Shown here piece after piece: positions 22,542 to 64,000 of a DNA stretch of 64,000 bases. The notes below the pieces were generated by a model. The model ran no database searches. It worked only from the letters and a program-made list of their open reading frames with translations, and was not told the origin of the DNA. The DNA lies in assembly GCF_026151205.1 (NCBI RefSeq), contig NC_087074.1:2170001-2234000 (forward strand), given 5' to 3'. The stretch comes from Bolinopsis microptera. Lineage: Eukaryota > Ctenophora > Tentaculata > Lobata > Bolinopsidae. Position numbers and translations under genes: made by a program. Within the stretch, counting starts at the first letter, position 1. Each line of letters begins with the position of its first letter.

Positions 22542-25500
22542 CTGAGGATGAGATGATGTTATACTCTGAGGATGAGATGATGTTATACTCTGAGGATGAG
22601 ATGATGTTATACTCTGAGGATGAGATGATGTTATACTCTGAGGATGAGATGATGTTATACTCTGAGGATGAGATGATGTTATACTCTGAGGATGAGATGA
22701 TGTTATACTCTGAGGATGAGATGATGTTATACTCTGAGGAAGAGATGATGTTATACTCTGAGGATGAGATGATGTTATACTCTGAGGATGAGATGATGTT
22801 ATACTCTGAGGATGAGATGATGTTATACTCTGAGGATGAGATGATGCTATACTCTGAGGATGAGATGATGTTATACTCTGAGGATATCACCGGATGTCAC
22901 ATCAAAATCGCATCAGTGCTGGATCATATGAGAGTTGTATGCAAGGTCACACAAACCTGCCAGTTTTGTGTAGACCCAGGTGTGATGTAGTGAGGTAGAG
23001 TTAAAGGAGTAACTAGAGAGTTGCTGACTAACACCTTCTCTCTATTGACTCTGCAGAACCGCAGCACTAACATCCCTCCCAACGTCATAGCTGAAACAAC
23101 ACGTGTTAGCACATGGTGACGTCATCAGTCATGACGTCATAATCAACAGATTAATTTCTATTCGAGTGTAGGTCTGAGCACTGTACGTGATTCTGCGATT
23201 GCAACTGTTTCATTAGACGAGCACGTGCACACACATGCACGTGCTCACACGATGCATGTATACTCAACACATCTTCATTAACCACAGCGTACGTTCTTCA
23301 GGCTAACTACCCTCAAATTATACACTTATTTTACGGGCTCAGCTGACGGTGTGAGATCCCCATTTAGCAGGGTGTAATAAAACTATCAGAGGTCTAATGA
23401 AGAAGTGGAGGGGCGGGTCGTAATTCGATACAACTCCTTCATAAACTGTTCTTCTGGCAATGGTACAGCTTTCACCAGCTTGTTAATTCGCACTACAATT
23501 ATTCAGCATAAATGTCATGAATATTCGCCCTGACTGCATAACTATGCATAAAATGTCGGCATAATTAGTGCGTTGTATTGAATATTCTTCGCACAAAAAG
23601 TGAGTCAAGACAGCGGACGGAGTACGGACGGACTGTGTAGGGCCAGGCTTGTTCAGGCTGCAAACTTATGGAGTGCCTAAATTTATCGTTGGCGTACTGC
23701 AGAATTGAACGTTAAAATACTGGGGTATTTAAAACACCCCATAATATTGCAGAGTCGTTAACATCCCATTATAAATCATCAGATATCATTTGAATTTGAT
23801 AATAGCCCCCGTGATCAGGCCCTATCATTATAATTTGAGTAGCCAGATGCTAGATTTAAAGGTGCGATGAAACCCGCTTGTTTCTAGTGCTAGGGAAAAA
23901 AGATAAAAATCAAATTGAAAAAATAATCAAAGAAATCGACTGTAGGACGTATTTAAATTGTGGGAACACTTAGCGAAACCGAAGAAAAAGTTTGTATTAT
24001 GATGAACGCAGAAGTAAGATATCAACAATGCAATAATTGTGTACCTATAAGATACAGACTACAGCTAAAACCACTTACCTATGATGAATACGAAGATGCC
24101 GACTATGTAAAGAGGGTAGGTGAGAGAGTTCTGAGGGTTCGGCTCGAACGCAGGGCCCCTCGGTGGGGGCATCTCCGGTCCTTTGGTGGGCGGGAAACTC
24201 TCAGAGGCAGTGGGCTCTTTGGTAAACCAGGTTATGTCGTTACAGAGGGCGAATTGGCAACACTGAGAGGGAAAAATCGTTAGTTTCATCACAGAAAGTT
24301 AAGTAGAACAAAGCACAATTTTTTATTTACAAAAAATGCAGAATTTCGTATATTGTTATGCTACAAGATAACATACCTGGTGTCCAATTTTAGTTACTCA
24401 TTAGTAACCATAGTTACTCACTAGTAACCATAGTTACTCACTAGTAACCATAGTGATAAGATAACATACCTGGTGTCCAATGTTGTTCTCTTGTTCAGCA
24501 CAGAAGAAGAAACTCTCGTTGATGTGAGTGCAGCCTCGAGCGGTGACTTCGTACACTCCTCTTCTGTCCGGGTCACGTGACTCCTCAGCTAGATAGAAAC
24601 AGGAGCCCGACTCTGCAGTGCAGGTCCCGCTGTCATCTGTACAGTACTCTGCAGTACACCTGGACAATGTGTTAATAACTTGTTCTGTAAAGAAACCAAC
24701 AGTTATTGAGTCCTTCATTAGTTACCATAGTTACTCGCTAGTAACCATAGTTACTCGCTAGTAACCATTGTTACTCGCTAGTAACCATAGTTACTCGCTA
24801 GTAACCATAGTTACTCGCTAGTAACCATAGTTACTCACTAGTAACCATAGCTACTCACTAGTAACCATAGCTACTCACTAGTAACCATAGTTACTCACTA
24901 GTAACCATAGTTACTCACTAGTAACCATAGTTACTCACTAGTAACCATAGTTACTCACTAGTAACCATAGCTACTCACTAGTAACCATAGCTACTCACTA
25001 GTAACCATAGCTACTCACTAGTAACCATAGTTACTCACTAGTAACCATAGTTACTCACTAGTAACCATAGTTACTCACTAGTAACCATAGTTACTCACTA
25101 GTAACCATAGTTACTCACAAGTAACCATAGTTACTCACTAGTAACCATAGTTACTCACTAGTAACCATAGTTACTCACTAGTAACCATAGTTACTCACTA
25201 GTAACCATAGTTACTCACTAGTAACCATAGTTACTCACTAGTAACCATAGTTACTCACTAGTAACCATAGTTACTCACTAGTAAAGAAACCAACAGTACC
25301 TTTATTAATTCCTTCATTGAAGTAGTAGTTGTACAGCAATACTAATAATACAATACTAATTGATAATATAGCAATACTAAGGTAATGAAACCTAAACCCT
25401 GTACATTAAAAACATGTTATTACATACATTATACACCTGTATAACCTACACTAGCTTCTCACTCACTTGCATTCAATAGGGACGATCGTGTCTTCATCAG

Positions 25501-25567
25501 AGATGAATCTGGCTAGCACAGAATAGCATAGCAGGGGTAGGAGGTACAGTGGTGCGGATCTAACCAT
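20834..25567 (-). CDS. TGF-beta/activin/BMP-type type I receptor serine/threonine kinase
   Basis: Eight exons on the minus strand join in phase: 25567-25467, 24659-24470, 24262-24079, 23090-23035, 22541-22383, 22030-21925, 21782-21673, 21505-20834. They encode 525 residues, the normal length for type I receptors (about 500-530). Domains: signal peptide ([19 protein letters not shown]), a ten-or-more-cysteine three-finger ectodomain ending CCQFALCND, one membrane span ([19 protein letters not shown]), the GS box TTSCSSGSG, and the kinase with P-loop [18 protein letters not shown] lysine, [12 protein letters not shown] and MAPE. The protein is phosphorylated on the GS box by a type II receptor and then phosphorylates Smads. 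The residue pattern ADQRD at the start of the L45 loop is nearer the Smad2/3 class (ADNKD) than the Smad1/5 class, a weak hint. Introns carry large arrays. Confidence 0.93.
21625..21646. promoter_or_regulatory. E-box plus CArG-like dispersed element
   Basis: CACGTGATGCCCAAATAAGG lies in the last intron of the type I receptor gene. CACGTG is an E-box palindrome and CCAAATAAGG fits the SRF CArG consensus. One of seven related copies in the window. Confidence 0.3.
22542..22886. repeat. 24-bp minisatellite made of the exon 5 acceptor, 14 copies
   Basis: On the minus strand every unit ends CATCTCATCCTCAG followed by AGTATAAC. The last unit is the genuine acceptor of the GS-box exon, where CTCAG is followed by AGTGTTCC. 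One unit differs by GAA for GAT. The open frames on both strands are low-complexity artefacts. Confidence 0.95.
24391..24456. repeat. 20-bp GTAACCATAGTTACTCACTA repeat between duplicated donor segments
   Basis: Three units of the family that fills intron 1. They are flanked on both sides by copies of the exon 2 end with its donor (24366-24390 and 24460-24483, sharing 24 identical bases). Confidence 0.85.
24717..25284. repeat. 20-bp minisatellite in intron 1 of the type I receptor, about 28 copies
   Basis: The unit GTAACCATAGTTACTCACTA recurs without interruption, with a few T/C and C/A variants (GCTACTCACTA, TCGCTA, TCACAA). On the minus strand each unit reads TAGTGAGTAACTATGG, which includes a GTGAGT donor-like string. 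Much of the intron is this array. Confidence 0.95.
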
Positions 25568-25810
25568 TGTCTAAGATCATTATCACTGGAAAATAAATCA
25601 AAGATAATGCTTGCTTCATTATTGAAAATATAATGATGATTTAGTACTGATTATTATAGCTAGCGAAGTGAAATGAAGGAAAATAAACTAGCCTCTTAAT
25701 GAAGCCTGTAAACAATTGGGAAATTGTAAAAAATTCCACCACAATACGTTAAACTGTGTGGTGTTATAGTTCCAACCATGAATTGTCGTTTGATTTTATG
25801 CACAACGTTA

Positions 25811-27359: not shown

Positions 27360-27507
27360 TTTACAACTGCAGTCAAATTGAAACAGTATTGAAGCTGTAA
27401 GAAAAGAGTGGTGTATTACAACTGCAGTCAAATTGAAACAGTATTGAAGCTGTAACAGACGAGTGGTGTATTACAACTGCAGTCAAATTGAAACAGTATT
27501 GAAGCTG
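27360..27507. repeat. 55-bp repeat, nearly three copies
   Basis: Copies begin near 27360, 27416 and 27471 with TTACAACTGCAGTCAAATTG and share the following AACAGTATTGAAGCTGT. Confidence 0.85.
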
Positions 27508-27571
27508 TCGACAGGTCAAATTTGATAGCAATCAAGGAAACTTCAGACGGAATACATTTAAAAGAGACAGA

Positions 27572-28370: not shown

Positions 28371-28483
28371 GTTATTGGCTCAATTCTTTATCCACTTCTT
28401 TATCGTGAAGATATCGAAACAGTCAACAAGTCTCAATATAAACGCCGTGCCCAGGATCTGTGATGTTTTAACTAACGGACCTA

Positions 28484-29150
28484 GTAGTGTAACTATGGTA
28501 ACTAGTAGTGTAACTATGGTAACTAGTAGTGTAACTATGGTAACTAGTAGTGTAACTATGGTAACTAGTAGTGTAACTATGGTAACTAGTAGTGTAACTA
28601 TGGTAACTAGTAGTGTAACTATGGTAACTAGTAGTGTAACTATGGTAACTAGTAGTGTAACTATGGTAACTAGTAGTGTAACTATGGTAACTAGTAGTGT
28701 AACTATGGTAACTAGTAGTGTAACTATAATGGTAACTAGTAGTGTAACTATGGTAACTAGTAGTGTAACTATGGTAACTAGGACGAGAACGCTGCAGCTC
28801 GTAGTAGTATAACTATGGTAACTAGTAGTGTAACTATGGTAACTAGTAGTGTAACTATGGTAACTAGAAGTGTAACTATGGTAACTAGTAGTATAACTAT
28901 GGTAACTAGTAGTGTAACTATGGTAACTAGTAGTGTAACTATGGTAACTAGTAGTGTAACTATGGTAACTAGGACGAGAACGCTGCAGCTCGTAGTAGTA
29001 TAACTTTGGTAACTAGTAGTGTAACTATGGTAACTAGTAGTGTAACTATGGTAACTAGTAGTGTAACTATGGTAACTAGGACGAGAACGCTGCAGCTCGT
29101 AGTAGTATAACTATAGTAACTAGTAGTGTAACTATGGTAACTAGGACGAG
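28484..29150. repeat. 21-bp GTAAC-type minisatellite with higher-order spacer
   Basis: The 21-base unit (GTAACTAGTAGTGTAACTAT plus G) is interrupted by the same 35-base spacer (GGACGAGAACGCTGCAGCTC core) near 28781, 28972 and 29079, with a partial copy near 29142. Blocks of units plus spacer have therefore been duplicated as a whole. Confidence 0.93.
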
Positions 29151-37794: not shown

Positions 37795-38975
37795 GATCAA
37801 AATAACCATGGTAACTAGTAGTGTAACCATGGTAACTAGTAGTGTAACCACTGGTATAGTAGTGTAACCATGGTAACTAGCGTATAATGTGTGCTGATCA
37901 AAATAACCATGGTAACTTGTGTGTAACCATGGTAACTAGTAGTGTAAACCTTGGTAAATAGTAGTGTAACACTTGGTAACTCAAGTAGTGTAACAATGGT
38001 AATAGTAGTGTAACCATGGTAATAGTAGTGTACACAATGGTAACTAGTAGTGTAACCATGGTAACTAGTAGTGTACCAAGGTAACTAGTGTGTAACCCAT
38101 GGTAACTAGTAGAGTAACCTAGCGTAACTAGTAGTGTAACCATGGTAACTAGTAGTGTAACCATGGTAACTAGTAGTGTAACCATGGTAACTAGTAGTGT
38201 TAACCATGGTAACTAGTAGTGTAACCATGGTAACTAGAGTGTAACCATGGTAACTAGTAGTGTAACCCTGGTCACTAGTCGTGTAACCACGGTAACTAGT
38301 AGTGTAACCATGGTAACAGTAGTGTAACCATGGTAACTAGTATGTAACCATGGTAACTATAGTGTAACCATGGTAACTAGTAGTGTAACCATGGTAACTA
38401 GTAGTGTAACCATGGTAACTAGTAGTGAACCATGGTAACTAGTGTTAACCATGGAACTAGTAGTGTAACCACGGTAACTAGTAGTGTAACCATGGTAACT
38501 AGTAGTGTAACCATGGTAACTAGTAGTGTAACCATGGTAACTAGTAGTGTAACCATGGTAACTAGTAGTGTAACCATGGTAACTAGTAGTGTAACCATGG
38601 TAACTAGTAGTGTAACCACGGTAACTAGTAGTGTAACCACGGAACTAGTAGTGGTAACCATGGTAACTAGTAGTGTAACCATGGAACTAGTAGTGTAACC
38701 ATGGTAACTAGTAGTGTAACCATGGTAACTAGTAGTGTAACCACGGTAACTAGTAGTGTAACCATGGTAACTAGTAGTGTAACCATGGTAACTAGTAGTG
38801 TAACCATGGTAACTAGTAGTGTAACCATGGTAACTAGTAGTGTAACCATGGTAACTAGTAGTGTAACCACGGTAACTAGTAGTGTAACCACGGTAACTAG
38901 TAGTGTAACCATGGTAACTAGTAGTGTAACCATGGTAACTAGTAGTGTAACCATGGTAACTATAGTTAACCATAC
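37795..38975. repeat. 21-bp GTAAC-type minisatellite, about 55 copies
   Basis: The unit is GTAACTAGTAGTGTAACCAT plus G. Units at 37.8-38.45 kb carry many one- and two-base indels, while those from 38.46 kb on are almost perfect (ATG/ACG alternation only). The indel-rich half may reflect assembly error or older, unhomogenised units. Same family as 28484-29150. Confidence 0.95.
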
Positions 38976-39777: not shown

Positions 39778-42700
39778 TTACTTCTTGAAGCTTTGTCGAA
39801 TCGAACCGACCATGCGCTGCAGAAACGCCAGTCTTCTGCAAGATCTGCGGAGGAACTGCTCGATAGTGTTGTCGTACAGAAGGGGGTTTATAACAGAGTT
39901 TAGAGGCAGCACAGTCATAGCAAAGCTGGCGTACCAACTAGTGGCGTCGATCACCTTCAAGCTGTGGAAAGCACATATCATGATGAACGGGACCCAACAG
40001 AAGAAGTCAGTGGTAATGATGATGAAAACTTTCCGTTGTAGTTTCTTGTTCTGTTGCATGACATCAGCGTTCCTATTCTGGCCTGTTCTCACTGAAGACT
40101 GCTGAGCTGTATTCGTTATTAGAATGTAGGACACTGTGATAACTGCAAAGCACACCAAGTTAAGAGTAAGCATGAACCACACTACAATATTACCTCTGTG
40201 ATCAATAGCATCAGCTCCCTGCTTGATTCGTGTCGGGTCGTTGTTACGCACGAAATACTTGAACAAACAAACTCCGTCGTTCCCATAGAAATGGACCGCT
40301 GTGCGAGTTAAAGTTCCGTAACTATGAGTGAACATGTTGTCTACCTTGCTGCCAATCTCCTTCCACGACATATCAACAGTAATGTTGGAGGTGTCGTTAA
40401 AGTATGCTTGAAGAATGTCCACGTGCTTGGCCTTGTTAGGGAACCCCACAAACATCTTGTATTCAGGATTATAAAACATGCCTTGCACAAAGTAGTCCTC
40501 GAGATACGCTACTAAGGGTACAGCAGCAACCGCAACGGAAACAGTTACAATAGCAAGAACCATGCAGAGTGTTTTGAGGACGACCCTCCTACCTACAGGG
40601 GCTGGAGCAGTGAGGGAGTTCTTAAACACTCCCATCATCCTGATGAAGCTCAGAGTTGTCATTGCAAAAAGGGAGAGTTGGGAAGCAGAAGTGCTGATGA
40701 CACCTAACACTTTACAATCATAACTTGACAGCCACTCAGCTTGGCTCCGACAGAAATCTTTTGCATAAATAAAACTGTCATAAATGGACAGTACAACAAG
40801 ATAAACGCCAATCATTAGGTCTCCCAAGCCTACAAGACCGATGAGAGCTTTAGTGTAGAGCATGCTACCACTCCGGCTATCTTTTAGGGTTACTGCTGCT
40901 TTCAGAACCATTACACTGTTAAACACCACCGCTAACACACCCATCAGCCAGCAAGTACACTTCAAAACTGGATTTCCTAAAATTTCTTTCCCGCAGCTTG
41001 AGTTACATTCGTCAGACAGATCAAAACAGTCGTAAATACCATCGCACTTCTGAGATACAGATATTATCTGCTCGTTGTCATGGTTACTTGGGGTGTTGTC
41101 ACACATCATGTGATTGGAACAGTGTTCCTCGTCCGATAAATCACCACAATCGTTTACAAGGTCGCACACTTGGCTGTATTTTATGCATTTACTGTTCCTA
41201 CATTGGAAGTAGTCGTTTCCGTAATCATAATTCTCCGATTGAGTGACAAAGGAGAGGAAGGAGTTGTTGGCTAGGGTGTAGACACGATCAGGGTACTGAC
41301 CCGGACAGGAATCATACGTTAGAGGAGCTGTGTTGAGAGGGCAGGTGGACTTGGAGTCAAACACACAGGTCCATACAGCTCAGATACACGTAGTATTCTC
41401 CAAACAGTTCATTGCAATTAATTTTAGAATTAGGGACCTTAACAAGGGTGGTGACCCCGAACACATCACCATAAGGTTTCTCGAAATTTCTAACTCTACA
41501 ATCCAGATCACTGAAGGCTTGGCATATATCACGAACCGTGCCATCCAGCGGAATAGTAGTATTTTTGCTAGGAAACCCTCTTGAGATCTGACACACTTCA
41601 TTCTCCATCATTCCACACGACTCAACTCCATCACATAGCAGATCAAATATCACATATGGTTTGTCTGACGAACTTCCTTCAGGGCACAAGAACACGTTCT
41701 CACAAGCCTCCTCCCCTAGTTTCACGCGATATGTTCTATCAGTCTTGTTCCCACAAAACTCCCAATTCCCAAATAGCTCATCTTTCCCGTTAACACAGTC
41801 AGTCTGATTATCCATTATCCAAGATATGGGAATACCCATCACATCTCCATTACCAAAGGAGCGTGCACACTGATCTGTCTTCCTTGTTGTCATGGTGTTA
41901 CACACGTCGTGAAACTCATCACTCCCATCAGGACAGTTGTACACTCCGTCACACCATTTGTGTTTGTGCACCTGACAACTAGCTGATGGAGACCGACACT
42001 CATCTTCTAGATGGTCATCACACAGGTTAACTGATTGGAGGGTTTTCCGTTGAGGATCATCACATACAACGTATTTTGACAAACTAGACACGAACCCACG
42101 AACCTTGCAATATCCGCCTATACGAGCTGGGTCTGAACAGTTTGTTTGGTCTCGATAGTCGAGGCAATATGGAAAATTGCGGGCCGTTAGATCGAAAACA
42201 CTACATCTCGTATAATTGAAGATTCTAGCTCTCGTCTCCTCATCACGCCAGAGTTTAGGGGAGTAGAGGATACAGCTGGAGGAAGCAGGCTCACTGTCCG
42301 TCACATTGCAGTTCAGTTCGTCTTGTTTACCAACACAATTGGTAGAACCGCCGCATATATTGTCCACTGAAACATACCTTGTTCTATTTTTTCCACTTAT
42401 GCACCACACTCCGTAGTAATATCCGTTACAGTAACTCTCGTCCACACACGTGGTTATGTTTCCGCAGTCTCCGTCACACAGCGAGTGTGTGGTATTCATC
42501 ATTATTTCACGGCTTTCTTGAGACAGAGTTTCCAAGTCTTGCTCACTGTTGCTTGTGTTGAATCTAACGAAGGTGTACTTATCAAAGTGTCCCCCACAGA
42601 GACTTCCGGAGTCTGCAGAGATATCTGTGCTGAACCCGCACGGCCTGATATACACCAGGATCATTCGCACACACCTTGGAGACACTTCGTAGCGAGTATA

Positions 42701-43033: not shown

Positions 43034-46000
43034 CTATTGATGAGAGCTGTTGAATTTAATCAACTAACCAACGTTTAAGATAAAATTGATAAATGTAGGT
43101 TGGAATTGACATGAAGTTTTGTCCAAAATTTGTATCAATTTTAACTTTTAAGGTCAGTAAGCTTAAAGTTTTTTTACTCTTAGCTCGATTATACAATTTT
43201 TGCATTGAATTGAAGTGTTTCAGATGCAGTCGTCGCTGATTCAAGAACTTGAACAAGGCCGTAGCACCCAAGGTTGCAGTTTTTACCTGATCGATTGGTG
43301 CAGTGCAGCCAAACAACGTCCCTATTCCCACAGCTGGTTTCTACTGTCGTAGCATCACAGATGGATATTTCGGCATCATCCTCCGTGCATCTCACTTTGT
43401 CCATTAGTACGGGTAAACTACTGTTCCACTTACTGGAGGGGAAAAGGTATTACTTATACTGAAACGATAGGGTCTATCATCAAGTAATACACTTCCTGTT
43501 GAGATACGAATTTGTTCAGGAGCTACAGTTTTTCTAATAGACATGGTGGGAAGAATCTGTTGGAAAATAACTAGATGAAAAGATGAAGCTCACTTGATGG
43601 TGTGACTCGGTTCCATTCTCCGAATTCGTATCCAAGACGTCGACAAAATATATTTGCCGACAACCAGTTCAATTGATCTTTACATACAGTCCCAAACTGC
43701 TTCACTCCGTGCTGTTTGTGAACAAAAGTCACAGTTAATTGGCCTTGAAGTTCTGGCCGACTTGGTTTAACCTTTCCTCCGTGAGCTGGATTGGAAATTC
43801 CAACTCTTTCTAGGTCCCAAACATACTCTGAAATGTATATTATTTATACACAAAATGCACAAAATGCACAAAATGCACACAACGCACACAACGCACACAA
43901 TGCACACAGTGCACACAATGCACACAATGCACACAATGCACACAGTGCGAGAGTGTCTGTTTTGCATACAGTTTACAAAAAACATCACAGCTGGATAATG
44001 GATATTTCCATAATGTCTACTGCAGCTGTAACAGTCACAACTGTTTCTAACTACCTTATCGGACCTTATTTGGACGGACATTACTTGAACGCTGGAGGCC
44101 CTAGCGTTTATCTTAATGTCCGTTCAAATAAAGTCCGTTCAATTAATGTCCGTCCAAGTTAAAGTCCGTTGAAATTTTTTCAAATATTTTTCCATTTCGA
44201 ACTTTTTGTCCAGAATATGACAACTATGATAACTTTATTGTGCCGTAAGTTAACGACGGAAAGGTTCTCCTTGGTCTGCCGGAGGCACAGAAAACTCTAC
44301 TAGTATATGATGTTTTCAAGGGTCACTTGGCGGAAAAAGTCCACAAAATTATGGCACTCAACAACATAGTTCATGAGGTAGTCCCCGCCAACATGACAAA
44401 CTTGTTCCAGCCTCTAGATATTACGGTAAATCGTGTTGCCAAGGACATTGTCCGACATTGTTATAGTTCATATTACTGAGGGGAGGTAATGAAACAGTGC
44501 TAGGAAAGCTCCACGTGATGTTAAGGTTAACCTAATGTTGTCTAAGATAAAACCACTTCACGCCGAATGGCTTGTAAAAGTTAACACTGAAATGCAGGAC
44601 CGGGGTAGTTTGATAAAAAAGGTTTCCATAAAGCTAGAAATCACTGATGCTTGTTTAAGCATGGACTATTTCATGCACGAAAACTCATTTAATGAAGATG
44701 ATGTGATATTAGACACTGATCATGTACACATATTTTAACATGTTTACTGCTTAATTACTGCTTTTCTTACTTACTGTATAAAAAATGGATTTAAAAATAA
44801 TTTGCTGAAATGAAAAAACGTCAAAAATTTGAAAAAAATTCGGATTTTTGATGGTTTTGAATGCCTTCGAGCGTTCATATTAATGTCCGTTCATAATTAT
44901 GTCTGTTCATGTAATGTCCGTCCAAATAAGGTCCGATAAAGTATTCACGGTTCATATACACATCATTAGCTTAGAGACAAAGTGGGGACAAATTAGAAAA
45001 ATAGGAACTGTACCTATATAGTAGAAAAGTGGTGTTTTGCTCTTTTTTGGCACGAAATAGAACTTGTCTACTTGGCGCTTCCAGTATAAGCTTTCCCAGA
45101 TTTCACTGTATTGGGGATCATCGCAAATATGAGAGGAAACTGTGACATTGAGAACCACCTTACCGTTACAAAACACAACTATCCTGTAACCTCTCTTCTG
45201 TATCGTCCACACCTTATCACTTGTAGTAGGTACACTAACCGGGAAAGCCGTTAGGTTGCTACAATATGCGAGTTGATACTCCAGGCCTCTCCCTGCGAAC
45301 TTAATCATGATCCCGCCTGAGAACCTATTCATCTCCGGATCCTCGAATTTTATTACTGTTTTATCACCGCTCCCTAGTTTAGAAGAGGTCTTCAAGTGGA
45401 GGTTGATGGTATCTAGGTACACGTAAACGTAATCCTTAGCCTCTTCTTTCCTCACCGGTATCCAAAGGTCTGTTTAAAAGTGACGTTCAGATTCTTAAAA
45501 GCAAATCAAATTAAAGCACACGGAAAAACAGTCCATCAACAGTCCAGCAATTCGGACGAACCGTAAACGGACAGACTTTATTTGAACGAACACAAAAATA
45601 AACGCTATGGTCACCAGCGTCCACATAATGTCCGTTGAAGTAAAATCAGATAAAGTACATAAAAAAGTCATCATCTACCTGACTTATACAGCATATCATT
45701 TGAAAATAAACAAAGAAAGAGAAAAAATTATTACCGGATGAATTGTGCGTGCACGACAGCCAAACTGTGCTTTTGTGAGAGCAACTTTCTTTCGTTATTA
45801 TTGCATCACACTCAGACATGCTACGGGTATCATCCTTGCAGTTGTAGTGAAGTGTAGTAGGAACCACATTGGTTTCCAGCCATGTCCTGTATTAAAAACG
45901 CTGGTCAGGTTTTGTAGCAATCTAGCAAAGGGGAATTTGTTTCTCACGGTTGGAGATTACTAGGTTATACGTGTAGAGTTAACTAAATAAAGAATTCATC

Positions 46001-49000
46001 AATTAAGACTCTTACTCAGGAGCATGCTTGAAGGTGCCGTTCCGGTAACTACCCCATTTCCCAGTTTCGTATCCAAGGTAGCGACAGAAGAGGTGAGCTT
46101 TCCACCAGTCGAAACTGTTCGCACAGATGCTTCCAATCCATGTGTAACCATGTTCGTTAACAAATCTAACAATAAGCAACCCTTCATTCGAACTTATCAT
46201 CTCTGCACTATTATTCATTCTGATCAGTGAAGCATTCGCTGGAAAATGTGATGATTTATGAGATTGCTTTTAGTTTTACTCTAGATAAGTCAACGTTTGG
46301 CTGACACGTAAACAAACAAAACAAAATAAACAAAGTTTATTGGTCATCTTTTTTATTCTTCTGGAGGGGTGAAAATATCAAAAAATCTTTATTCGTTTCT
46401 CAAACATAATAAAATCTGACTCTTACGAAAATCATAGCAATGGAGCCATGATATGCTACTATGTTCACACTTCTTTTCCTGTACTCCATAGTTGCAATCA
46501 AATATGGTTCCATCGTCAGTTTTGCATCCTATTCCATCCATTTGAATAGGTTCTGTATTTTTATCCAGCCATATCCTGAGTTTTACATGGTGAATATGAT
46601 AAAACTTCATTGGTATCAATCAGAAACCTATCGCTTTTGGTATGCTAGGTTGAATTATATTATATTCTGGGTTATGCTAGGTTGAATTATATTATATTCT
46701 GGGTTATGTTAGGTTATATTATATTATATTCTGGATTATGCTAGGTTGAATTATATTATATTCTGGGTTATGCTAGGTTGAATTATATTATAATTATATA
46801 TTCAAATCATACCTGTAGTCGTATGTTGTGTTTTTTGGTTCTTTAATCCATTGTCCAGATTTGTATCCAAAATGCAGACAAAGCAACTCTGAAGCTTTTT
46901 CGTTAGAGCCACTGTTGCAAGCAGTCCCCATCTGCCTTATCCCACTTTTCTTATTGACAAAAGTTACAGTAAAGAAAATGTCAGGTCCAGTTTGAATGAT
47001 TGTTGAGTTGGGAGAAGGAGAGGGAGAGGGAGAAGGAGAGGAGAGAGGAGTTGAGGATTGTGTAGATCGATCCTATAAACCTCCCAGATGTTTTCTAAAA
47101 TGGTAGAAATGCTTTCGATTAGATATTTTTTGTTACAATATATTCAGTATTCATAATGAACAAATCGACGGAAAATTCTGAAAAACTTGCAAAACATAGT
47201 TTACTTACCTAAAAAATAATAAGTTTCTTCTTTGTTGTTTTTTGATCGATCAAATGACATTTTGACTGCTTTCCTTCCCCAAGACTCAGTGAAACTAACA
47301 TCAGTACATGTTTCAGAAGACGTAGTGAAGTCAAGGACTTGTTTACCATTACACGATACTTTCATTCTGTGCCCTCGCTTCTCTATACTCCAAAATATGC
47401 TATCTTCAATAATAGGTGTATATTGGTCAAAAGAGCGAGACTTTTCCATGCAATTGAAGAGTTTGTACGAAGGCTGTGACTTGAAATATATCGTAATACC
47501 ACCTGCAGCCTCATCTTCTTCATCAAAGTACCGATTTTCCAGTTTTTGGCCGTTGTATACTACAGTACCATTTCCATTGTTGAAGTGCAAAAAAGACGAT
47601 TCTAAATAAACGGGTACTCCTGAGTTTACACCGTAATCGTATCTGGTCCAGATCTCTGAAATTATTCGTCAAGATACTAATTACCTGGGACCCTAGGCTT
47701 ACTGTTTATAAAGATGTGTCGGAGCTCAGTCTGTCATTTGCGGAGTGACAGGCTGAGCTCCGCCCTGTAAGATACTAATTATATATTGGTAGGTTTGGTA
47801 ATGGTATTGATAAATGTCTACTGTTTCGCTGTACTGGATTTTGCACGAGCGTTCAATTGAGGATCAATTTCGGGGGATAAAATGCCTGAAAAAAGTAAGT
47901 TATAAAGTTTATAAGGCTGAAGGTTACCTGCTGAGTTCTCTTTGTCACAAAAGAGCCAAACATTTCTGCTATGATTACGGTTTTCTTTCACTATCACGAT
48001 GTCGCATTCAGAAATTGTACGTGCATTTACATTGCAATTGTAATCCAGGTCCATGGTGACCACGCTGTTCTTTAATAACCAAGACCTGAACCAAAGCAGT
48101 CATTTTCAAATCCCAAAGGAAAATCTGTTGGAAGGAATTTCTAATCCGGGAATTTCTATTCCGGAAATCGTGGCAAAAAATTGGCGTGAATTACAAATCG
48201 TGGCACTCACTCTTGCACGTATTTAAAGTTTTTCGGGTAACTGCCCCATTTCCCAGTTTTGTATCCAAGGTAACGACAAAAGAGGTTAGCTTTCCACCAG
48301 TCAAAACTGTTCGCAGAAATGCTCCCGTTCCTTTTGTCTCTATGCTCGTCGAGGAATGTAAGAATTAGCAAACCCTCGTTTCCTGTTCTCACTTCCGTTC
48401 TATCCCTCATACTTATCAGTGTGGCATTTGCTGAAATGTTATAGTCATACTCATCAGTGTGGCATTTGCTGAAATGTTATAGTCATACTTATCAGTGTGG
48501 CATTTGCTGAAATGTTATAGTCATACTCATCAGTGTGGCATTTGCTGAAATGTTTTATCTCTCATACTTATCAGTGTGACATTTGCTGAAATGTTAAAGT
48601 CATACTCATCAGTGTGGCATTTGCTGAAATGTTATAGTCATACTCATCAGTGTGGCATTTGCTGAAATGTTTTATCTCTCATACTTATCAGTGTGGCATT
48701 TGCTGAAATGTTAAAGTCATACTCATCAGTGTGACATTTGCTGAAATGTTATAGTCATACTTATCAGTGTGGCATTTGCTGAAATGTTATAGTCATACTC
48801 ATCAGTGTGGCATTTGCTGAAATGTTATAGTCATACTCATCAGTGTGGCATTTGCTGAAATGTTTTATCTCTCATACTTATCAGTGTGACATTTGCTGAA
48901 ATGTTTTATCTCTCATACTTATCAGTGTGACATTTGCTGAAATGTTCTATCCCTCATACTTATCAGTGTGGCATTTGCTGAAATGTTAAAGTCATACTCA

Positions 49001-52000
49001 TCAGTGTGACATTTGCTGAAATGTTATAGTCATACTTATCAGTGTGGCATTTGCTGAAATGTTATAGTCATACTCATCAGTGTGGCATTTGCTGAAATGT
49101 TATAGTCATACTTATCAGTGTGGCATTTGCTGAAATGTTCTATCCCTCATACTTATCAGTGTGGCATTTGCTGAAATGTTAAAGTCATACTCATCAGTGT
49201 GACATTTGCTGAAATGTTATAGTCATACTTATCAGTGTGGCATTTGCTGAAATGTTATAGTCATACTCATCAGTGTGGCATTTGCTGAAATGTTATAGTC
49301 ATACTTATCAGTGTGGCATTTGCTGAAATGTTATAGTCATACTCATCAGTGTGACATTTGCTGAAATGTTATAGTCATACTTATCAGTGTGGCATTTGCT
49401 GAAATGTTATAGTCATACTTATCAGTGTGGCATTTGCTGAAATGTTATAGTCATACTCATCAGTGTGGCATTTGCTGAAATGTTTTATCTCTCATACTTA
49501 TCAGTGTGACATTTGCTGAAATGTTTTTTTGCTGGCGGATTTTATTTTTGTTTAGTTTTGAATTCATCACAATTGTAAGATTGCATAATTTTGAAAATGC
49601 ACTTTTATGTTATTAAACTATTACAGAAAGTGATGCATAGAATTTTTAAATACTGGCGAAGTTTTTTTCCTACTTTATAGTTGTATATGCAACTCATAAA
49701 TTATTATAAAAAACAAATCTTACGAAAGTCATTGCAACGGAGCCACGTGATGATATCATAGTCGCATCTCTGCTCTCGTACCCCGTATTCACATTCAGAT
49801 ATGGTCTGATCGTCTGGCCGACACCTCATTCCGTCCATTTGAATAGGTCCTGTGTTGTTTTCCAGCCACAATCTACGGGTTTTATATTATATAAAGGCAA
49901 ACAAATTTTACTGGTAAAGTGATATTGGACTTAGCTGGATGTTAAGAAGGGTCGGAAAGGGTTACCCAGGAATGCCCGGTAGGGGTCTGTGGAGTGTTAC
50001 CTAGGGGTGCTGGTAAGTAGGGTAACTTAGTTACCAACACCCCTAGTTACCAGCACCCCTAGTTACCAGCACCTCTAGTTACCAGGTACATTAGTTACCA
50101 ACACCCCTAGTTACCAGGTAACTAGCATGACTGACGGATAACCTTCAAAGCTTTATTATAATCATTAAAATATATCACCTGATGTTATAGTCTATTTTTT
50201 CTGGCTTTCTTTCCCATTGACCAGATTGGTATCCGAAATGCTTGCAGAGCAAGTTTGCAGCTTCTCCATTTAGATCGTTGATACAGGCAGTTCCTACTTG
50301 ATCCATTCCACTGTGTCTATTAATAAACGTAACTGTGATAAGGCCATTAGCTCCAGGTCGGATTTTTGTGGAGTTTACTGGATAGAGATTTTGTAGTTCA
50401 AATTCTTTAAATTCCCAGACATCTTCTGAAAGTTTGAAATAGCGAAAAGTCTAATATTGGATTATAATATAATAAATATAATCTATTACGTATTACTTAT
50501 TATTAAAATGTTCATAACATTGATCCAGTTAACGACTTAGGAGCTACAAAATAAAAACCATTTATGCACCAAAATGATATAAATTTGGTACCAAAATGAT
50601 ATATAGTTGGTAACAAAATGATATATATGGTTGGTAACAAAATGATATAAAGTTGGTACCAAAATGATATAAAGTTGGTTCTTCGTTTTTCTTGGACCGA
50701 TCAAATTTCATCTCGACGACGTTGCTCCCCCAGGAAAGGGCATTCCACTTTTTATCATTGCATGTTTTAGAAGACGCTGTGACGTCAAGTACTGCCACCC
50801 CGTTGCAGGACACAGCAATTCTCATTCCTCGTTTCTCAATACTCCACAGTCTGTGTAACTCCGTGGGTACACGCGTATCGAAAGGGCGTGACTTTTTCAT
50901 ACACTTGTCCAACTTATATTTGCTTTTAGACTCAAAGAATATAGTGATTCCACTAACAAATTCGTTACTTTCATTAAAGAATCGAATTTCTAGTTTTTTC
51001 CCACTGTCCACTGCGATGCTTGTTTTTACGTGTAAGTAACATGCTTCCAGAAAAACAGGAATGAAAGGTTTTTTCTTGAAATCGTAGCTCGTCCAGATCT
51101 CTGTAAAATACAGTACTATTGCTGTTGTGTTGTAAAATGTAAGGTACTACTGTAAGGTACTACTGTAAGGTACTACTGTAAGGTACTACTGTAAGGTACT
51201 ACTGTAAGGTACTACTGTAAAGTGTAAGGTACTACTGTAAGATACTACTGTAAGGTACTACTGTAAGGTACTACTGTAAGGTACTACTGTAAGGTACTAC
51301 TGTAAGGTACTACTGTAAGGTTCTACTGTAAGGTACTACTGTAAGGTACTACTGTAAGGTACTACTGTAAGGTACTACTGTAAGGTACTACTGTAAGGTA
51401 CTACTGTAAGGTACTACTGTAAGGTACTACTGCAAGGTACTACTGTAAGGTACTACTGTAAGGTACTACTGTAAGGTACTACTGCAAGGTACTACTGTAA
51501 GGTACTACTGCAAGGTACTACTGTAAGGTACTACTGTAAGGTACTACTGTAAGGTACTACTGTAAGGTACTACTGTAAGGTACTACTGTAAGGTACTACT
51601 GTAAGGTACTACTGTAAGGTACTACTGTAAGGTACTACTGTAAGGTACTACTGTAAGGTACTACTGTAAGGTACTACTGTAAGGTACTACTGCAAGGTAC
51701 TACTGTAAGGTACTACTGTAAGGTACTACTGTAAGGTACTACTGCAAGGTACTACTGTAAGGTACTACTGCAAGGTACTACTGTAAGGTACTACTGTAAG
51801 GTACTACTGTAAGGTACTACTGTAAGGTACTACTGTAAGGTACTACTGTAAGGTACTACTGTAAGGTACTACTGTAAGGTACTACTGTAAGGTACTACTG
51901 TAAGGTACTACTGTAAGGTACTACTGTAAGGTACTACTGTAAGGTACTACTGTAAAGTGTAAGGTACTACTGTAAGGTACTACTGTAAGGTACTACTGTA

Positions 52001-57838: not shown

Positions 57839-60800
57839 TCATCGACTGTCCATATGTAAGTCAATTATCTGAAAAATTGCATATTTAAGAGCAGGAACTA
57901 AAAATGAGAAAATGATTAATATTAAAATTTCGTTTGTATAACGATCAAATCATGTCTCACCTGACAGACTGCCATATCTCACCTGACTGACTGCCATGTC
58001 TCACCTGACTGACTGCCATATCTCACCTGACTGACTGCCATGTCTCACCTGACTGACTGCCATATCTCACCTGACTGACTGCCATGTCTCACCTGACTGA
58101 CTGCCATGTCTCACCTGACTGACTGCCATGTCTCAACTAACTGACTGCCATATCTCACCTGACTGACTGCCATATCTCACCTGACTGACTGCCATGTCTC
58201 ACCTGACTGACCGCAGTGTCTCAACTGACTGACTGCCATATCTCACCTGACTGACTGCCATATCTCACCTGACTGACTGCCATGTCTCACCTGACTGACT
58301 GCCATGTCTCACCTGACTGACTGCCATGTCTCACCTGACTGACTGCCATGTCTCACCTGACTGACTGCCATATCTCACCTGACTGACTGCCATATCTCAC
58401 CTGACTGACTGCCATATCTCACCTGACTGACTGCCATGTCTCACCTGACTGACTGCCATGTCTCACCTGACTGACTGCCATGTCTCACCTGACTGACTGC
58501 CATGTCTCACCTGACTGACTGCCATGTCTCACCTGACTGACTGCCATGTCTCACCTGACTGACTGCCATGTCTCACCTGACTGACTGCCATGTCTCACCT
58601 GACTGACTGCCATGTCTCACCTGACTGACTGCCATGTCTCACCTGACTGACTGCCATGTCTCACCTGACTGACTGCCATATCTCACCTGACTGACTGCCA
58701 TGTCTCACCTGACTGACTGCCATGTCTCACCTGACTGACTGCCATATCTCACCTGACTGACTGCCATGTCTCACCTGACTGACTGCCATGTCTCACCTGA
58801 CTGACTGCCATGTCTCACCTGACTGACTGCCATGTCTCACCTGACTGACTGCCATGTCTCACCTGACTGACTGCCATGTCTCACCTGACTGACTGCCATA
58901 TCTCACCTGACTGACTGCCATGTCTCACCTGACTGACTGCCATGTCTCACCTGACTGACTGCCATATCTCACCTGACTGACTGCCATATCTCACCTGACT
59001 GACTGCCATATCTCACCTGACTGACTGCCATGTCTCACCTGACTGACTGCCATGTCTCACCTGACTGACTGCCATGTCTCACCTGACTGACTGCCATGTC
59101 TCAACTAACTGACTGCCATGTCTCAACTAACTGACTGCCATGTCTCACCTGACTGACTGCCATATCTCACCTGACTGACTGCCATGTCTCACCTGACTGA
59201 CTGCCATGTCTCACCTGACTGACTGCCATGTCTCACCTGACTGACTGCCATGTCTCACCTGACTGACTGCCATGTCTCACCTGACTGACTGCCATGTCTC
59301 ACCTGACTGACTGCCATATCTCACCTGACTGACTGCCATGTCTCACCTGACTGACTGCCATGTCTCACCTGACTGACTGCCATGTCTCACCTGACTGACT
59401 GCCATGTCTCACCTGACTGACTGCCATGTCTCACCTGACTGACTGCCATGTCTCACCTGACTGACTGCCATGTCTCACCTGACTGACTGCCATGTCTCAC
59501 CTGACTGACTGCCATGTCTCACCTGACTGACTGCCATGTCTCACCTGACTGACTGCCATGTCTCACCTGACTGACTGCCATGTCTCACCTGACTGACTGC
59601 CATGTCTCACCTGACTGACTGCCATATCTCACCTGACTGACTGCCATGTCTCACCTGACTGACTGCCATATCTCACCTGACTGACTGCCATGTCTCACCT
59701 GACTGACTGCCATGTCTCACCTGACTGACTGCCATGTCTCACCTGACTGACTGCCATGTCTCACCTGACTGACTGCCATGTCTCACCTGACTGACTGCCA
59801 TGTCTCACCTGACTGACTGCCATGTCTCACCTGACTGACTGCCATGTCTCACCTGACTGACTGCCATGTCTCACCTGACTGACTGCCATGTCTCACCTGA
59901 CTGACTGCCATATCTCACCTGACTGACTGCCATGTCTCACCTGACTGCCATGTCTCACCTGACTGACTGCCATGTCTCACCTGACTGACTGCCATGTCTC
60001 ACCTGACTGACTGCCATGTCTCACCTGACTGACTGCCATGTCTCACCTAACTGACTGCCATGTCTCACCTGACTGACTGCCATGTCTCACCTGACTGACT
60101 GCCATGTCTCACCTGACTGACTGCCATGTCTCACCTGACTGACTGCCATGTCTCACCTGACTGACTGCCATGTCTCACCTGACTGACTGCCATGTCTCAC
60201 CTGACTGACTGCCATATCTCACCTGACTGACTGCCATGTCTCACCTGACTGACTGCCATGTCTCACCTGACTGACTGCCATGTCTCACCTGACTGACTGC
60301 CATGTCTCACCTGACTGACTGCCATATCTCACCTGACTGACTGCCATGTCTCACCTGACTGACTGCCATGTCTCACCTGACTGACTGCCATGTCTCACCT
60401 GACTGACTGCCATGTCTCACCTGACTGACTGCCATGTCTCACCTGACTGACTGCCATGTCTCACCTGACTGACTGCCATGTCTCACCTGACTGACTGCCA
60501 TGTCTCACCTGACTGACTGCCATGTCTCACCTGACTGACTGCCATGTCTCACCTGACTGACTGCCATGTCTCACCTGACTGACTGCCATGTCTCACCTGA
60601 CTGACTGCCATGTCTCACCTGACTGACTGCCATGTCTCACCTGACTGACTGCCATGTCTCACCTGACTGACTGCCATGTCTCACCTGACTGACTGCCATG
60701 TCTCACCTGACTGACTGCCATATCTCACCTGACTGACTGCCATGTCTCACCTGACTGACTGCCATGTCTCACCTGACTGACTGCCATGTCTCACCTGACT

Positions 60801-63455
60801 GACTGCCATGTCTCACCTGACTGACTGCCATGTCTCACCTGACTGACTGCCATGTCTCACCTGACTGACTGCCATGTCTCACCTGACTGACTGCCATGTC
60901 TCACCTGACTGACTGCCATGTCTCACCTGACTGACTGCCATGTCTCACCTGACTGACTGCCATGTCTCACCTGACTGACTGCCATGTCTCACCTGACTGA
61001 CTGCCATGTCTCACCTGACTGACTGCCATGTCTCACCTGACTGACTGCCATGTCTCACCTGACTGACTGCCATGTCTCACCTGACTGACTGCCATGTCTC
61101 ACCTGACTGACTGCCATGTCTCACCTGACTGACTGCCATGTCTCACCTGACTGACTGCCATATCTCACCTGACTGCCATGTCTCACCTGACTGACTGCCA
61201 TGTCTCACCTGACTGACTGCCATGTCTCACCTGACTGACTGCCATGTCTCACCTGACTGACTGCCATGTCTCACCTGACTGACTGCCATGTCTCACCTGA
61301 CTGACTGCCATGTCTCACCTGACTGACTGCCATGTCTCACCTAACTGACTGCCATATCTCACCTGACTGACTGCCATATCTCACCTGACTGACTGCCATG
61401 TCTCACCTGACTGACTGCCATGTCTCACCTGACTGACTGCCATGTCTCACCTGACTGACTGCATGTCTCACCTGACTGCCATATCTCACCTGACTGACTG
61501 CCATGTCTCACCTGACTGACTGCCATGTCGTCTTCATAGTCGGGGGCTCTGGTTTTGATGGCGACGTCCTGCATCGCATCAGTAATAGTCTCCAGTAAGA
61601 GATCATCTTTTTTATAGCACGGGTCAACAGACATGTTGAGCTGAAGATGGTTGTATCAGCTGTTTTAGTATTACTTACTTGTTACTTGTTAGTTACGCAT
61701 AAACAAAGCAATTTTTTAAGTGTAAACCAATTCTAAAAACAAAACATAACCCATTAAAAAGAAACCTCGAGAGTAGGTTTCCTAAGTAGAGACACGTGAT
61801 GCCCATATAAGGAGAAAACAAACCTCGAGAGCTGAAGGTTGCTCGACGGAACCTTGTCCGCTCTCAATGACACACAAACCGTTGATAGCCTCACTGTTGT
61901 GTATAGTGTCGGTTCTGAGGGGCGTGCTGTGCAATTCCATATCATCGTATATATTGTCTGCGTGGTGGGAATCCTCCGACACAACTGAGTGCGATACAGG
62001 GTGAGAGACACGTGATGCACATATAAGGAGAGGGATACAAACTGCAGAACTAGTAGAGACACGTGATGCCCATATAAGGAGAGGGATACAAACTGAGAGG
62101 TGGAGATATAAACCTGTTTGATTAGCTAGTCACCATAGTTACACTGCTAGTTACCTGTTTGATCAGCAAGTATAGAAGAACTAGCGTTGTTGAGAGAAGA
62201 GGGTAGCACGTGAACAGTTCTAAAACAGAACTGCGGTCCCATCCATAGGCATCTGTGGGGTGCTTCGTAAGTCTGTATCTCCACATAGCTCACCCAACCC
62301 TCATCCTTCTTACAAAGTTCTTCATCTTCCGCTTCTATCTCTGAAATAGTGCGGATTTGATATAACAGGTCAAATTCAGAAGGTTTGATGTATTATGATT
62401 ATTCTGAGATTTAGTAAGACTCTTTTCCTGACTTTGTATTATCGCTAACTTGAGAGCCCCCCCCCCCCCCTTAACTTGAGAGTAGAGTTACCCTGTTAGA
62501 GAGAAGATGAGAGCCCCCCCCCCACTATTAACTTGAGAGTAGAGTTACCCTGTTCAGAGTGAAGATGAGAGCCCCCCCCCCCCTACTTGAGACTTGAGAG
62601 TAGAGTTACCCTGTTCAGAGAGAAGATGAGAGCCCCCCCCCCCCCCCCTTAACTTGAGAGTAGAGTTACCCTGTTCAGAGAGAAGATGAGAGCCCCCCCC
62701 CCCTTAACTTGAGAGTAGAGTTACCCTGTTCAGAGTGAAGATGAGAGCCCCCCCCCCCTCTCTTAACTTGAGAGTAGAGTTACCCTGTTCAGAGAGAAGA
62801 TGAGAGCCCCCCCCCCCCCACTATTAACTTGAGAGTAGAGTTACCCTGTTCAGAGAGAAGATGAGAGCCCCCCCCCCTTAACTTGAGAGTAGAGTTACCC
62901 TGTTCAGAGAGAAGATGAGAGCCCCCTACCCTTAACTTGAGACTTTGAGAGTAGAGTTACCCTGTTGAGAGAGAAGATGAGAGCCCCCCCCCTCCCCCTT
63001 AACTTGAGAGTAGAGTTACCCTGTTCAGAGAGAAGATGAGAGCCCCCCCCCCTTAACTTGAGAGTAGAGTTACCCTGTTGAGAGAGAAGATGAGAGCCCC
63101 CCCCCCCCCCCTTTAACTTGAGAGTAGAGTTACCCTGTCGAGAGAGAAGATGGGAGCCCCCCCCCCCCCCCCTTAACTTGAGAGTAGAGTTACCCTGTTG
63201 AGAGAGAAGATGAGAGCCCCCCCCCCCCTAACTTGAGAGTAGAGTTACCCTGTTCAGAGAGAAGATGAATGTCCTTGAACTGAAGAACAGGCTCACTCCG
63301 AGTGCTCCTCCCTAAGTTCCACTGTATAGAGGGGGTGGCTGTAAGCTGTATCGGAGCATCGTCAGCCGGGATCACTCCCGTCAAAACACAGCAGTCGAAC
63401 TTATACTCCACCAACACACCTCCAGGTCCCAACACGAACAAGGACTCACTCCTCA
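57839..63455 (-). CDS. Unidentified gene, 3' part, acidic tyrosine-containing C-terminus
   Basis: Four exons join in phase on the minus strand: 63455-63249, 62340-62155, 61984-61824, 61640-61512. A tentative terminal exon at 57868-57839 (IIDLHMDSR, stop) comes after the 3.6-kb array intron. The gene must continue past the right edge, since the first exon begins in phase 1. The protein starts VRSESLFVLGPGGVLVEYKF and has no recognised domain; QLTATPSIQWNLGRS and WVSYVEIQTYEAPHRCLWMG look globular. The end is acidic with NIYDDMEL and APDYEDDMA; YDDM fits the YxxM SH2-binding form, so a cytoplasmic signalling tail is possible (inference). Three of its splice junctions lie inside tandem repeats and a fourth is duplicated. 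Confidence 0.6.
57958..61512. repeat. 22-bp minisatellite of a consensus 5' splice site, about 160 copies
   Basis: On the minus strand each unit is GCAGTCAGTCAG, GTGAGACATG. The copy at the right edge is the real donor of exon 61640-61512, where the CAG codes the final Gln of DDMAVSQ and GTGAGA starts the intron. Almost all units keep CAG/GTGAGA; common variation is GACATG/GATATG and a few GTTGAGA or GTTAGTTGAG units. A few units are 18 bases, lacking one GACT. Confidence 0.97.
61793..62081. promoter_or_regulatory. Cluster of three E-box/CArG elements
   Basis: Copies at 61793-61814, 62009-62030 and 62060-62081, each CACGTGATGCCCATATAAGG (one with GCA for GCC), in two introns of the unidentified gene. 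The last two are preceded by the same GAGA and followed by AGGGATACAAACTG, so the repeated piece is longer than the binding motifs. Confidence 0.35.
62440..63265. repeat. 55-60 bp minisatellite with C runs and the exon donor, about 14 copies
   Basis: On the minus strand each unit reads CATCTTCTCTCTGAACAG, GGTAACTCTACTCTCAAG, then a G run of 7-17. The first 18 bases are the 3' end of exon 63455-63249 with its donor. Unit lengths differ mainly through the C runs, some broken by T or A. Confidence 0.95.
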
Positions 63456-63469
63456 CTGGGGGAGATATG

Positions 63470-64000
63470 AGTTATTATATAGTTACTATGGTTACTATAT
63501 TTACTATTATATTTACTATGGTTACTATGGTTACTATGGTTACTATGGAACTTATACTCCACCAACACACCTCCAGGTCCCAACACGAACAAGGACTCAC
63601 TCCTCACTGGGGGAGATGTGAGTTATTATATAGTTACTATGGTTACTATGGTTACTATGGTTACTATGGAACTTATACTCCACCAACACACCTCCGGGTC
63701 CCAACACGAACAAGGACTCACTTCTCACTGGGGGAGATGTGAGTTATTATATAGTTACTATGGTTACTATATTTACTATTATATTTACTATGGTTACTAT
63801 GGTTACTATGGTTACTATGGAACTTATACTCCACCAACACACCTCCAGGTCCCAACACGAACAAGGACTCACTCCTCACTGGGGGAGATGTGAGTTATTA
63901 TATAGTTACTATGGTTATTATGGTTACTATGGTTACTATGGAACTTATACTCCACCAACACCCCCCGGGTCCTAACACGAACAAGGACTCACTCCTTACT
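63470..64000. repeat. Tandem duplications of acceptor plus 60 bases of exon, at least four extra copies
   Basis: The block from GAACTTATACTCCACCAACA through GGACTCACTCCTCACTGGGG is the start of exon 63455-63249 and its acceptor. It recurs near 63548-63618, 63668-63738, 63818-63888 and 63938-64000, separated by TTACTATGG repeats. The last copy runs off the window. Confidence 0.93.

What the first reader, a model, noticed from the sequence alone, without database searches (positions are those of the whole stretch)
22542..64000. Minisatellites grown out of exon-intron junctions in several genes
Seen directly: in three genes the tandem unit that fills an intron is the splice site of the adjacent exon, with part of the exon included. 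Acceptors are repeated at 22.54, 48.43 and 63.46 kb. Donors are repeated at 24.4, 50.66, 61.51, 62.16 and 63.25 kb. The other introns of these genes have ordinary borders. A recurrent process that duplicates sequence exactly at splice junctions is not a standard feature of minisatellites. Candidate causes are junction-linked strand breaks, microhomology (CAG/GT) slippage, R-loops at donors, or selection that tolerates expansion only where a spare splice site keeps the message intact.
Basis: partly seen in the sequence, partly recalled or inferred. Interest (0 to 1): 0.85.

Follow-up and report, generated by a model that had tools for sequence, protein, structure and literature searches.

The report
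Tandem repeats spanning splice junctions
In this comb-jelly-like genome, some short tandem repeats inside genes have grown out of an exon-intron border, so one splice site is copied up to about 160 times; the same oddity is known from amphioxus as 'mirages', and it looks like ordinary repeat growth tolerated by splicing rather than a process aimed at splice sites.

Summary
The other two (24.4, 62.16 kb) are two-copy direct repeats of a donor around other DNA. BCAS3 continues beyond the window with three more junction arrays. In 206 introns defined by homology elsewhere, arrays spanning a junction are no more frequent than random placement predicts (6 of 90, 7.6 expected). Array edges at or within 10 nt of donors show a modest excess (12 of 90, 5.9 expected, p 0.01, post hoc; not significant in the replicate alone). 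Paralogous exons have the same junctions without an array on them. In 10 of 12 arrays whose frame could be resolved, only the exon-proximal copy gives an open message; the others must be ignored by the spliceosome, as exon definition predicts. The class is already described: amphioxus 'mirages' and the human CBS 31-bp VNTR. Here it is found and counted in what is probably the ctenophore Bolinopsis microptera. New member of a known kind; a useful natural test of splice-site choice.

The parts
22539..22885 (-). 24-bp x14.5 array carrying the 3' splice site (ATAACATCATCTCATCCTCAG|AGT) of the GS/kinase exon of a TGF-beta-type receptor gene; open in frame through all copies
24458..24481 (-). true donor of the extracellular-domain exon (ATTGGACACCAG|GTATGTTATCTT), first copy of a 24-bp exact direct repeat
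   Evidence: exon matches Pfam Activin_recp
24391..24454 (-). 3-copy 20-bp array of the dispersed GTAACTATGG-type family lying between the two donor copies
24365..24388 (-). second copy of the 24-bp donor repeat, intronic; target-duplication-like
24715..25284 (-). 28-copy array of the same 20-bp unit upstream of the same exon, flanked by a direct repeat of the intron's 3' end (17 nt exact core GTAAAGAAACCAACAGT on the + strand)
48407..49525 (-). 38-bp x29 acceptor array: 14 intron nt ending CATTTCAG plus 24 exon nt, SRCR-like gene
46190..46300 (-). paralogous exon start with the same acceptor (CACATTTTCCAG|CGAATGC) and no array on it: comparison state
50568..50679 (-). 22-bp x5 donor array (..ATATCATTTTG|GTACC..), 3 of 5 copies keep GT
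47130..47290 (-). paralogous exon end with donor TTTTTTAG|GTAAGT and no array on it; a third such donor near 45.01 kb (a short 16-bp array, 44872-44935, lies about 80 nt inside that intron)
57951..61529 (-). 22-bp x163 donor array in BCAS3: GACATGGCAGTCAGTCAG|GTGA, 18 exon nt per unit
62112..62166 (-). BCAS3 donor CTGATCAAACAG|GT and an imperfect second copy 41 nt on, separated by a GTAACTATGG-type stretch
62451..63268 (-). about 57-bp x14 donor array in BCAS3, unit ..CTCTCTGAACAGG|GTAACT.. with a poly-G run; intron phase agrees with the next exon by eye
63397..64000 (-). 121/151-bp repeat = acceptor TCTCCCCCAG + first 60 nt of a BCAS3 exon + short array; 6 acceptor copies counting L001

Best explanation
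These are 'mirage'-type minisatellites. In a genome that makes short tandem duplications very often, some duplications happen to include a pre-existing exon-intron junction. Duplications inside coding exons are mostly lost; those in introns or straddling a junction survive, because the copy next to the exon still marks the exon and the further copies become intron. The array then grows by the usual copy-number turnover, multiplying a splice site that is not needed. I infer that the spliceosome picks the exon-proximal copy by exon definition. Shown: anatomy, paralogous junctions without an array on them, no excess of junction-spanning arrays over random placement, loss of the open frame in most arrays if another copy were used. 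By eye: intron phases in BCAS3. Inferred: loss of purely exonic duplications, the duplication mechanism (fill-in repair of staggered breaks is my preferred cause), and which copy is used in RNA.
For: Junction inside the unit at six sites in the window and three in L001. Same class in genes not chosen for it: L028 5485-7230 (33 bp x52, 26 exon nt + GTAAGTG), L066 251-1126 (35 bp x25, 30 exon nt + GTAAG), L028 2105-5015 (26 bp x112, acceptor), L036 5318-5851 (acceptor), L020 4063-4169 and L036 1376-1452 (two-copy, donor), L064 132-553 (two-copy, donor), L066 7392-7628 (acceptor). Random-placement test: 6 of 90 arrays of score >=50 span a junction, 7.6 expected; assuming 150-bp ancestral introns the expectation is higher, 18.4 of 75 against 6 seen in the first sample. 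Paralogous exons keep the junction with no array on it. Splice dinucleotides in copies are neither purged nor specially kept: 7 letter changes in 510 copies, Monte Carlo P 0.21. Of 15 arrays tried, 12 could be resolved; in 10 of these every other copy gives a stop or frameshift. Known precedent with normal splicing in amphioxus.
Against: Array edges do crowd donors: 12 of 90 at or within 10 nt, 5.9 expected, p 0.01; score >=100: 10 of 38 vs 3.4, p 0.0007. Arrays that stop just inside the intron show no homology to the exon, so they are not decayed mirages. Exon pairs dropped by my gap rule (39) held at least three further junction arrays seen by eye, so the rule is biased against them. BCAS3 carries six junction arrays, far above the sample rate. 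Two of 12 resolved arrays do not need the exon-proximal copy: the receptor's 24-bp array is open through all copies, and in the BCAS3 22-bp array the fourth donor would be in frame and open. No RNA, second haplotype or related genome was available.
Confidence: 0.72

Rival explanations
1. A donor-linked process (R-loops, transcription-coupled breaks or nicking near 5' splice sites) seeds tandem duplications at intron starts, and junction arrays are its product.
For: Donor-side excess 12 of 90 vs 5.9 (p 0.01), none at acceptors 3 of 90 vs 5.9.
Against: Test chosen after looking; replicate alone 2 of 15 vs 1.0, p 0.26. Among the nine junction arrays of the window and L001, five are at acceptors and four at donors. 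Selection on the branch point and polypyrimidine tract could also push arrays towards the donor side.
Confidence: 0.15
2. For the 24.4, 24.7-25.3 and 62.16 kb sites only: insertion with target duplication. Units of a dispersed minisatellite family are inserted as filler DNA at staggered breaks, duplicating 10-24 bp of target, here including a splice site.
For: 24.4 kb: 24-bp exact repeat 2-3 nt from either edge of a 3-copy array; direct repeats in array flanks (score >=10) in 9 of 257 arrays vs 1.3 in shuffled pairs, four or five of the nine in this family. The 21-mer has 706 + 642 exact copies in the genome, reversed control 0.
Against: Some of the nine flank repeats lie 20-34 nt from the array or inside its unit, so they are not clean target duplications. 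Does not explain the six sites where the unit is exon plus splice site. 62.16 kb holds no array found by the repeat finder; the likeness of its insert to the family is by eye.
Confidence: 0.7
3. The introns themselves were born by tandem duplication of exon sequence containing AGGT.
For: Some units hold both a fair acceptor and a donor, e.g. CTTCTCTCTGAACAGG|GTAACT.
Against: Paralogous exons have the same junctions with no array on them; apart from BCAS3 intron 10, which has different arrays at its two ends, only one end of the intron is in a unit.
Confidence: 0.05
4. The arrays are selected as spare splice sites or as length regulators of splicing.
For: Copies keep their splice letters (7 letter changes in 510 copies); the receptor unit is 24 bp and open through all copies.
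Against: Splice letters are no better kept than other letters of the same units (P 0.21); read-through hits a stop or frameshift in 10 of 12 resolved arrays.
Confidence: 0.06

Closest known systems
Amphioxus 'mirages' (Adh3, TnC, globin BflGb6/BflGb9, PGBD5)
   Different: Different phylum; up to 163 copies here; no RNA or haplotype data here, whereas amphioxus RT-PCR suggested regular splicing and BflGb6 alleles differed in copy number.
Human CBS 31-bp VNTR, c.1444_1467+7(16_21)
   Same: Its nomenclature implies a unit of 24 exon nt + 7 intron nt repeated 16-21 times (passages of PMC2630376; the reading of the name is mine), the same layout as L028 (26+7) and L066 (30+5).
   Different: A single polymorphic human locus; here many loci.
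Intron gain by tandem genomic duplication
   Same: Local tandem duplication that creates extra splice signals (start of the abstract of PMC4974935; theory summarised in a passage of PMC3087553).
   Different: Here the introns pre-exist and usually one end is ordinary.
Patch-mediated repair with filler DNA (plants; recalled, no paper read)
   Same: Short insertions flanked by duplicated target, as at 24.4 kb.
   Different: Mechanism not tested here.

Membership tests
Mirage (exon-intron boundary minisatellite) | Tandem unit spans a real exon-intron boundary | tested here: met
   Six sites in window, three in L001, more in L020, L028, L036, L064, L066 by homology-defined exons
Mirage (exon-intron boundary minisatellite) | Both 5' and 3' boundaries can be involved | tested here: met
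   Donor and acceptor arrays both found
Mirage (exon-intron boundary minisatellite) | Copies carry splice signals | tested here: met
   7 letter changes at the splice dinucleotide in 510 copies of 14 arrays
Mirage (exon-intron boundary minisatellite) | mRNA spliced normally from the authentic copy | not testable with these tools
   No RNA; frame analysis predicts it for 10 of 12 resolved arrays
Mirage (exon-intron boundary minisatellite) | Copy-number instability between alleles | not testable with these tools
   One assembly only
Intron gain by tandem duplication | Both splice sites of the intron derive from the duplicated unit; intron absent in relatives | tested here: not met
   First half: same junction with no array on it in paralogous exons. 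Second half not testable, no relatives
Introner | One dispersed element makes many introns | tested here: not met
   By eye, the 14 junction units differ and each consists of its own local exon and intron sequence
Insertion with target duplication (24.4, 62.16 kb) | Direct repeat of target on both sides of foreign DNA | tested here: met
   24-bp exact repeat at 24.4; 14-nt repeat with 1 mismatch at 62.16; 9 of 257 arrays vs 1.3 control. No empty site seen
Ctenophore (Bolinopsis microptera) genome | About 265 Mb, 13 chromosomes holding about 97% of bases | tested here: met
   C1-C13 lengths as printed sum to 258.07 of 264.65 Mb (97.5%); published 265 Mb and 97.23%. Circumstantial; scaffold numbers differ (232 vs 346)

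The most novel reading that the evidence does not exclude
Junction-spanning minisatellites are a genome-wide class in this ctenophore (about 3% of introns in conserved genes: 6 of 206), seeded preferentially near 5' splice sites by a donor-linked break or repair process, and tolerated because ctenophore splicing chooses the exon-proximal site by exon definition even against 50-160 near-identical competitors.
Probability: 0.2. Interest if true: 0.65.

Novelty: new member of a known kind. Interest (0 to 1): 0.42.

Why it matters
Arrays of dozens of near-identical splice sites next to one exon are a natural experiment on how the spliceosome picks a site: exon definition predicts the exon-proximal copy, intron definition the distal one. 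They also suggest how tandem duplication near exons is filtered by selection, and they warn gene annotators: homology searches and splice predictors can misplace borders in such genes, as mine did once (L073). Finding the class in a probable ctenophore as well as in amphioxus and a human gene suggests that it follows from general mutation plus tolerance, not from a lineage-specific machine.

Tried and rejected
Conservation of decoy splice sites: a first tally looked like strong conservation (7 changes vs 20.7 expected), but most variation sits in a few columns; drawing random dinucleotides from the same units gives P 0.21, so I dropped it. Decayed mirages: arrays that end within 25 nt of a junction without reaching it do not extend into the exon. 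Intron gain by duplication: disfavoured by paralogous junctions without an array on them. L018 versus L019 (intron 1062 vs 122 nt): a before/after pair, but the difference is an insertion with inverted array ends, not a junction array. L073 was counted as a junction array; its paralogue L072 shows that the donor was mis-set, and repeats the test with the donor moved. One search (PF12777) gave mostly single-exon matches and was not used. Papers on ctenophores plus minisatellites: 2 hits, both irrelevant by title; the introner paper holds no ctenophore or tandem passages. A first CBS search found nothing, a second did.

Limits: introns were defined by Pfam exon matches and my own splice scoring, not by transcripts; 39 consecutive exon pairs were skipped in the first sample and 3 in the replicate. 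When I copied the myosin rows I left out one duplicated exon (C3:9154255-9154485) and matches that I did not fetch; kinesin, UCH, ABC and G-alpha matches outside the fetched pieces were likewise left out, and pieces were chosen by me, without introns longer than about 6 kb. In one search the BCAS3 57-bp array failed (anchor not found) and the frames of L066 41 bp and L036 21 bp were not resolved.
Full report
What is there. The window is C3:2170001-2234000 of a 264.65-Mb, 232-contig animal genome. Thirteen contigs hold 258.07 Mb (97.5%, my sum of lengths printed), which fits the published Bolinopsis microptera assembly (265 Mb, 13 chromosomes, 97.23% of bases; passages of PMC10232365 and PMC11797021). 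I treat the species as probable only. Tandem arrays are abundant: 61,903 of 345,834 bases of all DNA held (window plus 86 loci) lie in them.

All lie in minus-strand genes: a TGF-beta-type receptor (Activin_recp and kinase matches), a gene with SRCR-like exons (matches well below the curated cut-off), and BCAS3 (PF12490). At 22.54, 48.43, 50.66, 61.51, 63.25 and 63.46 kb the repeat unit itself contains the splice site and some exon. In BCAS3 the intron phases fit by eye: for example CAGG|GTAACT joins G to AG at the next exon, and CTACAG|A follows a phase-2 exon end. At 24.4 and 62.16 kb the donor is present twice, but as a direct repeat on either side of other DNA.

Comparison states. The SRCR-like gene has repeated exons. 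The acceptor that is arrayed at 48.4 kb is present with no array on it at 46.2 kb; the donor that is arrayed at 50.6 kb is present with no array on it at 47.2 and about 45.0 kb (a short 16-bp array lies about 80 nt inside the last intron). So the junctions most likely came first and the arrays grew on them.

Is it more than chance? The window was picked because of the pattern, so I built a sample that did not depend on it. Pfam searches for Cpn60_TCP1, myosin head, kinesin, DHC_N2 and SNF2 gave exon positions; I fetched 65 pieces and defined 175 introns by frame, query continuity and splice score (39 exon pairs skipped). Introns with an array of score 100 or more: 24, median 1330 nt; the other 151 have median 206 nt. 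For each array I computed the chance that a unit of that length, placed at random over the intron after collapsing the array, would span a junction. First sample, score >=150: 5 of 25 against 3.5 expected, p 0.25; score >=50: 6 of 75 against 6.4. If all arrays had been born in 150-bp introns the expectation rises to 10.1 of 25 and 18.4 of 75. A replicate from UCH, ABC_membrane and G-alpha genes gave 31 introns (3 pairs skipped). After moving one mis-set donor the two samples together give 6 of 90 spanning a junction, 7.6 expected. So no excess of junction-spanning arrays is shown.

What does stand out is the donor side: 12 of 90 arrays overlap or start within 10 nt of a donor, 5.9 expected (p 0.01; score >=100: 10 of 38 vs 3.4, p 0.0007); at acceptors 3 of 90, 5.9 expected. 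I chose this test after seeing the data; the replicate alone is 2 of 15 against 1.0 (p 0.26). Arrays just inside the intron do not extend into the exon. Constraint on the branch point and polypyrimidine tract could give part of this asymmetry; not tested. The pairs skipped by my rule held at least three more junction arrays seen by eye, L028 2105-5015, L066 7392-7628 and L023 1141-1256, so the sample understates them somewhat.

How it works. I read the frame of 15 arrays. Three were not resolved (BCAS3 57 bp, anchor not found; L066 41 bp and L036 21 bp, phase uncertain). In 10 of the other 12 every copy but the one next to the exon leads to a stop or frameshift: L028 33 and 26 bp, L066 35 bp, L020 53 bp, L036 38 bp, L064 207 bp, BCAS3 63, 68 and 69 bp, and the 38-bp array at 48.4 kb. 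Two are exceptions: the receptor's 24-bp array is open through all copies and could add 8-residue blocks, and in the BCAS3 22-bp array the second and third donors shift the frame but the fourth would be in frame and open. The splice dinucleotides of the copies are intact in nearly all cases (7 letter changes in 510 copies of 14 arrays) but no more so than other letters (P 0.21); nothing shows that decoys are purged or kept. I conclude that duplications spanning a junction survive because the exon-proximal copy still serves, and that this copy is chosen by exon definition; the latter is inferred.

How duplications start. Among 56 two-copy duplications the number of extra matching bases at the ends has median 1, with 18 of 56 at 4 or more, which speaks against a general need for microhomology but does not exclude it in some. 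A separate path exists: a dispersed family (21-mer TTACCATAGTTACACTACTAG, 706 + 642 exact copies, reversed control 0). The 24.4, 24.7-25.3 and, by eye, 62.16 kb sites are of this kind.

Compared with what is known. [quoted passage not shown] the original Adh3 paper is cited there and was not read). The human CBS 31-bp VNTR has the layout 24 exon + 7 intron nt (PMC2630376, passages; the reading of its name is mine). In the library searched I found no report of such repeats in ctenophores (passages of three ctenophore genome papers), which is weak evidence of absence. Verdict: new member of a known kind, in a lineage where I found none reported, with a count against random placement.

Noticed in passing
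window 24391-24454, 24715-25284, 28481-29144, 37803-38973; L034; C1 at several places: A dispersed minisatellite family with core GTAACTATGGTAACTAG: one 21-mer version has 706 + 642 exact copies genome-wide (listing shows the first 100, all on C1), and some of its arrays are flanked by 10-24 bp direct repeats, as if inserted.
   Followed up: partly
L018 about 865-1800 (absent from the near-identical L019); L066 2497-3838: Insertions whose two ends are tandem arrays in inverted orientation (foldback-like); L018/L019 is an insertion/empty pair in duplicated kinesin genes.
   Followed up: partly
window 16128-19517 (+) and 39778-42796 (-): Two long open stretches in opposite orientation that look like related LDL-receptor-A plus 7-transmembrane genes; Pfam confirms this for 39778-41379 only.
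   Followed up: no
window 3430-3909 (+): ORF with a GIY-YIG-like motif, perhaps a Penelope-like element fragment (recalled motif, not searched).
   Followed up: no
window 5084-7837: 2.75-kb AT-rich array of a 74-bp unit with higher-order periods.
   Followed up: no
G000 C3:9154012-9154203 and 9154255-9154485: A myosin-head exon present twice in tandem (query 105-167 and 102-167), possibly mutually exclusive exons.
   Followed up: no
L001 about 1-1500: A larger, decayed duplication inside a BCAS3 intron that carries a degenerate copy of the 60-nt exon piece and a second block of the 63-bp array.
   Followed up: no
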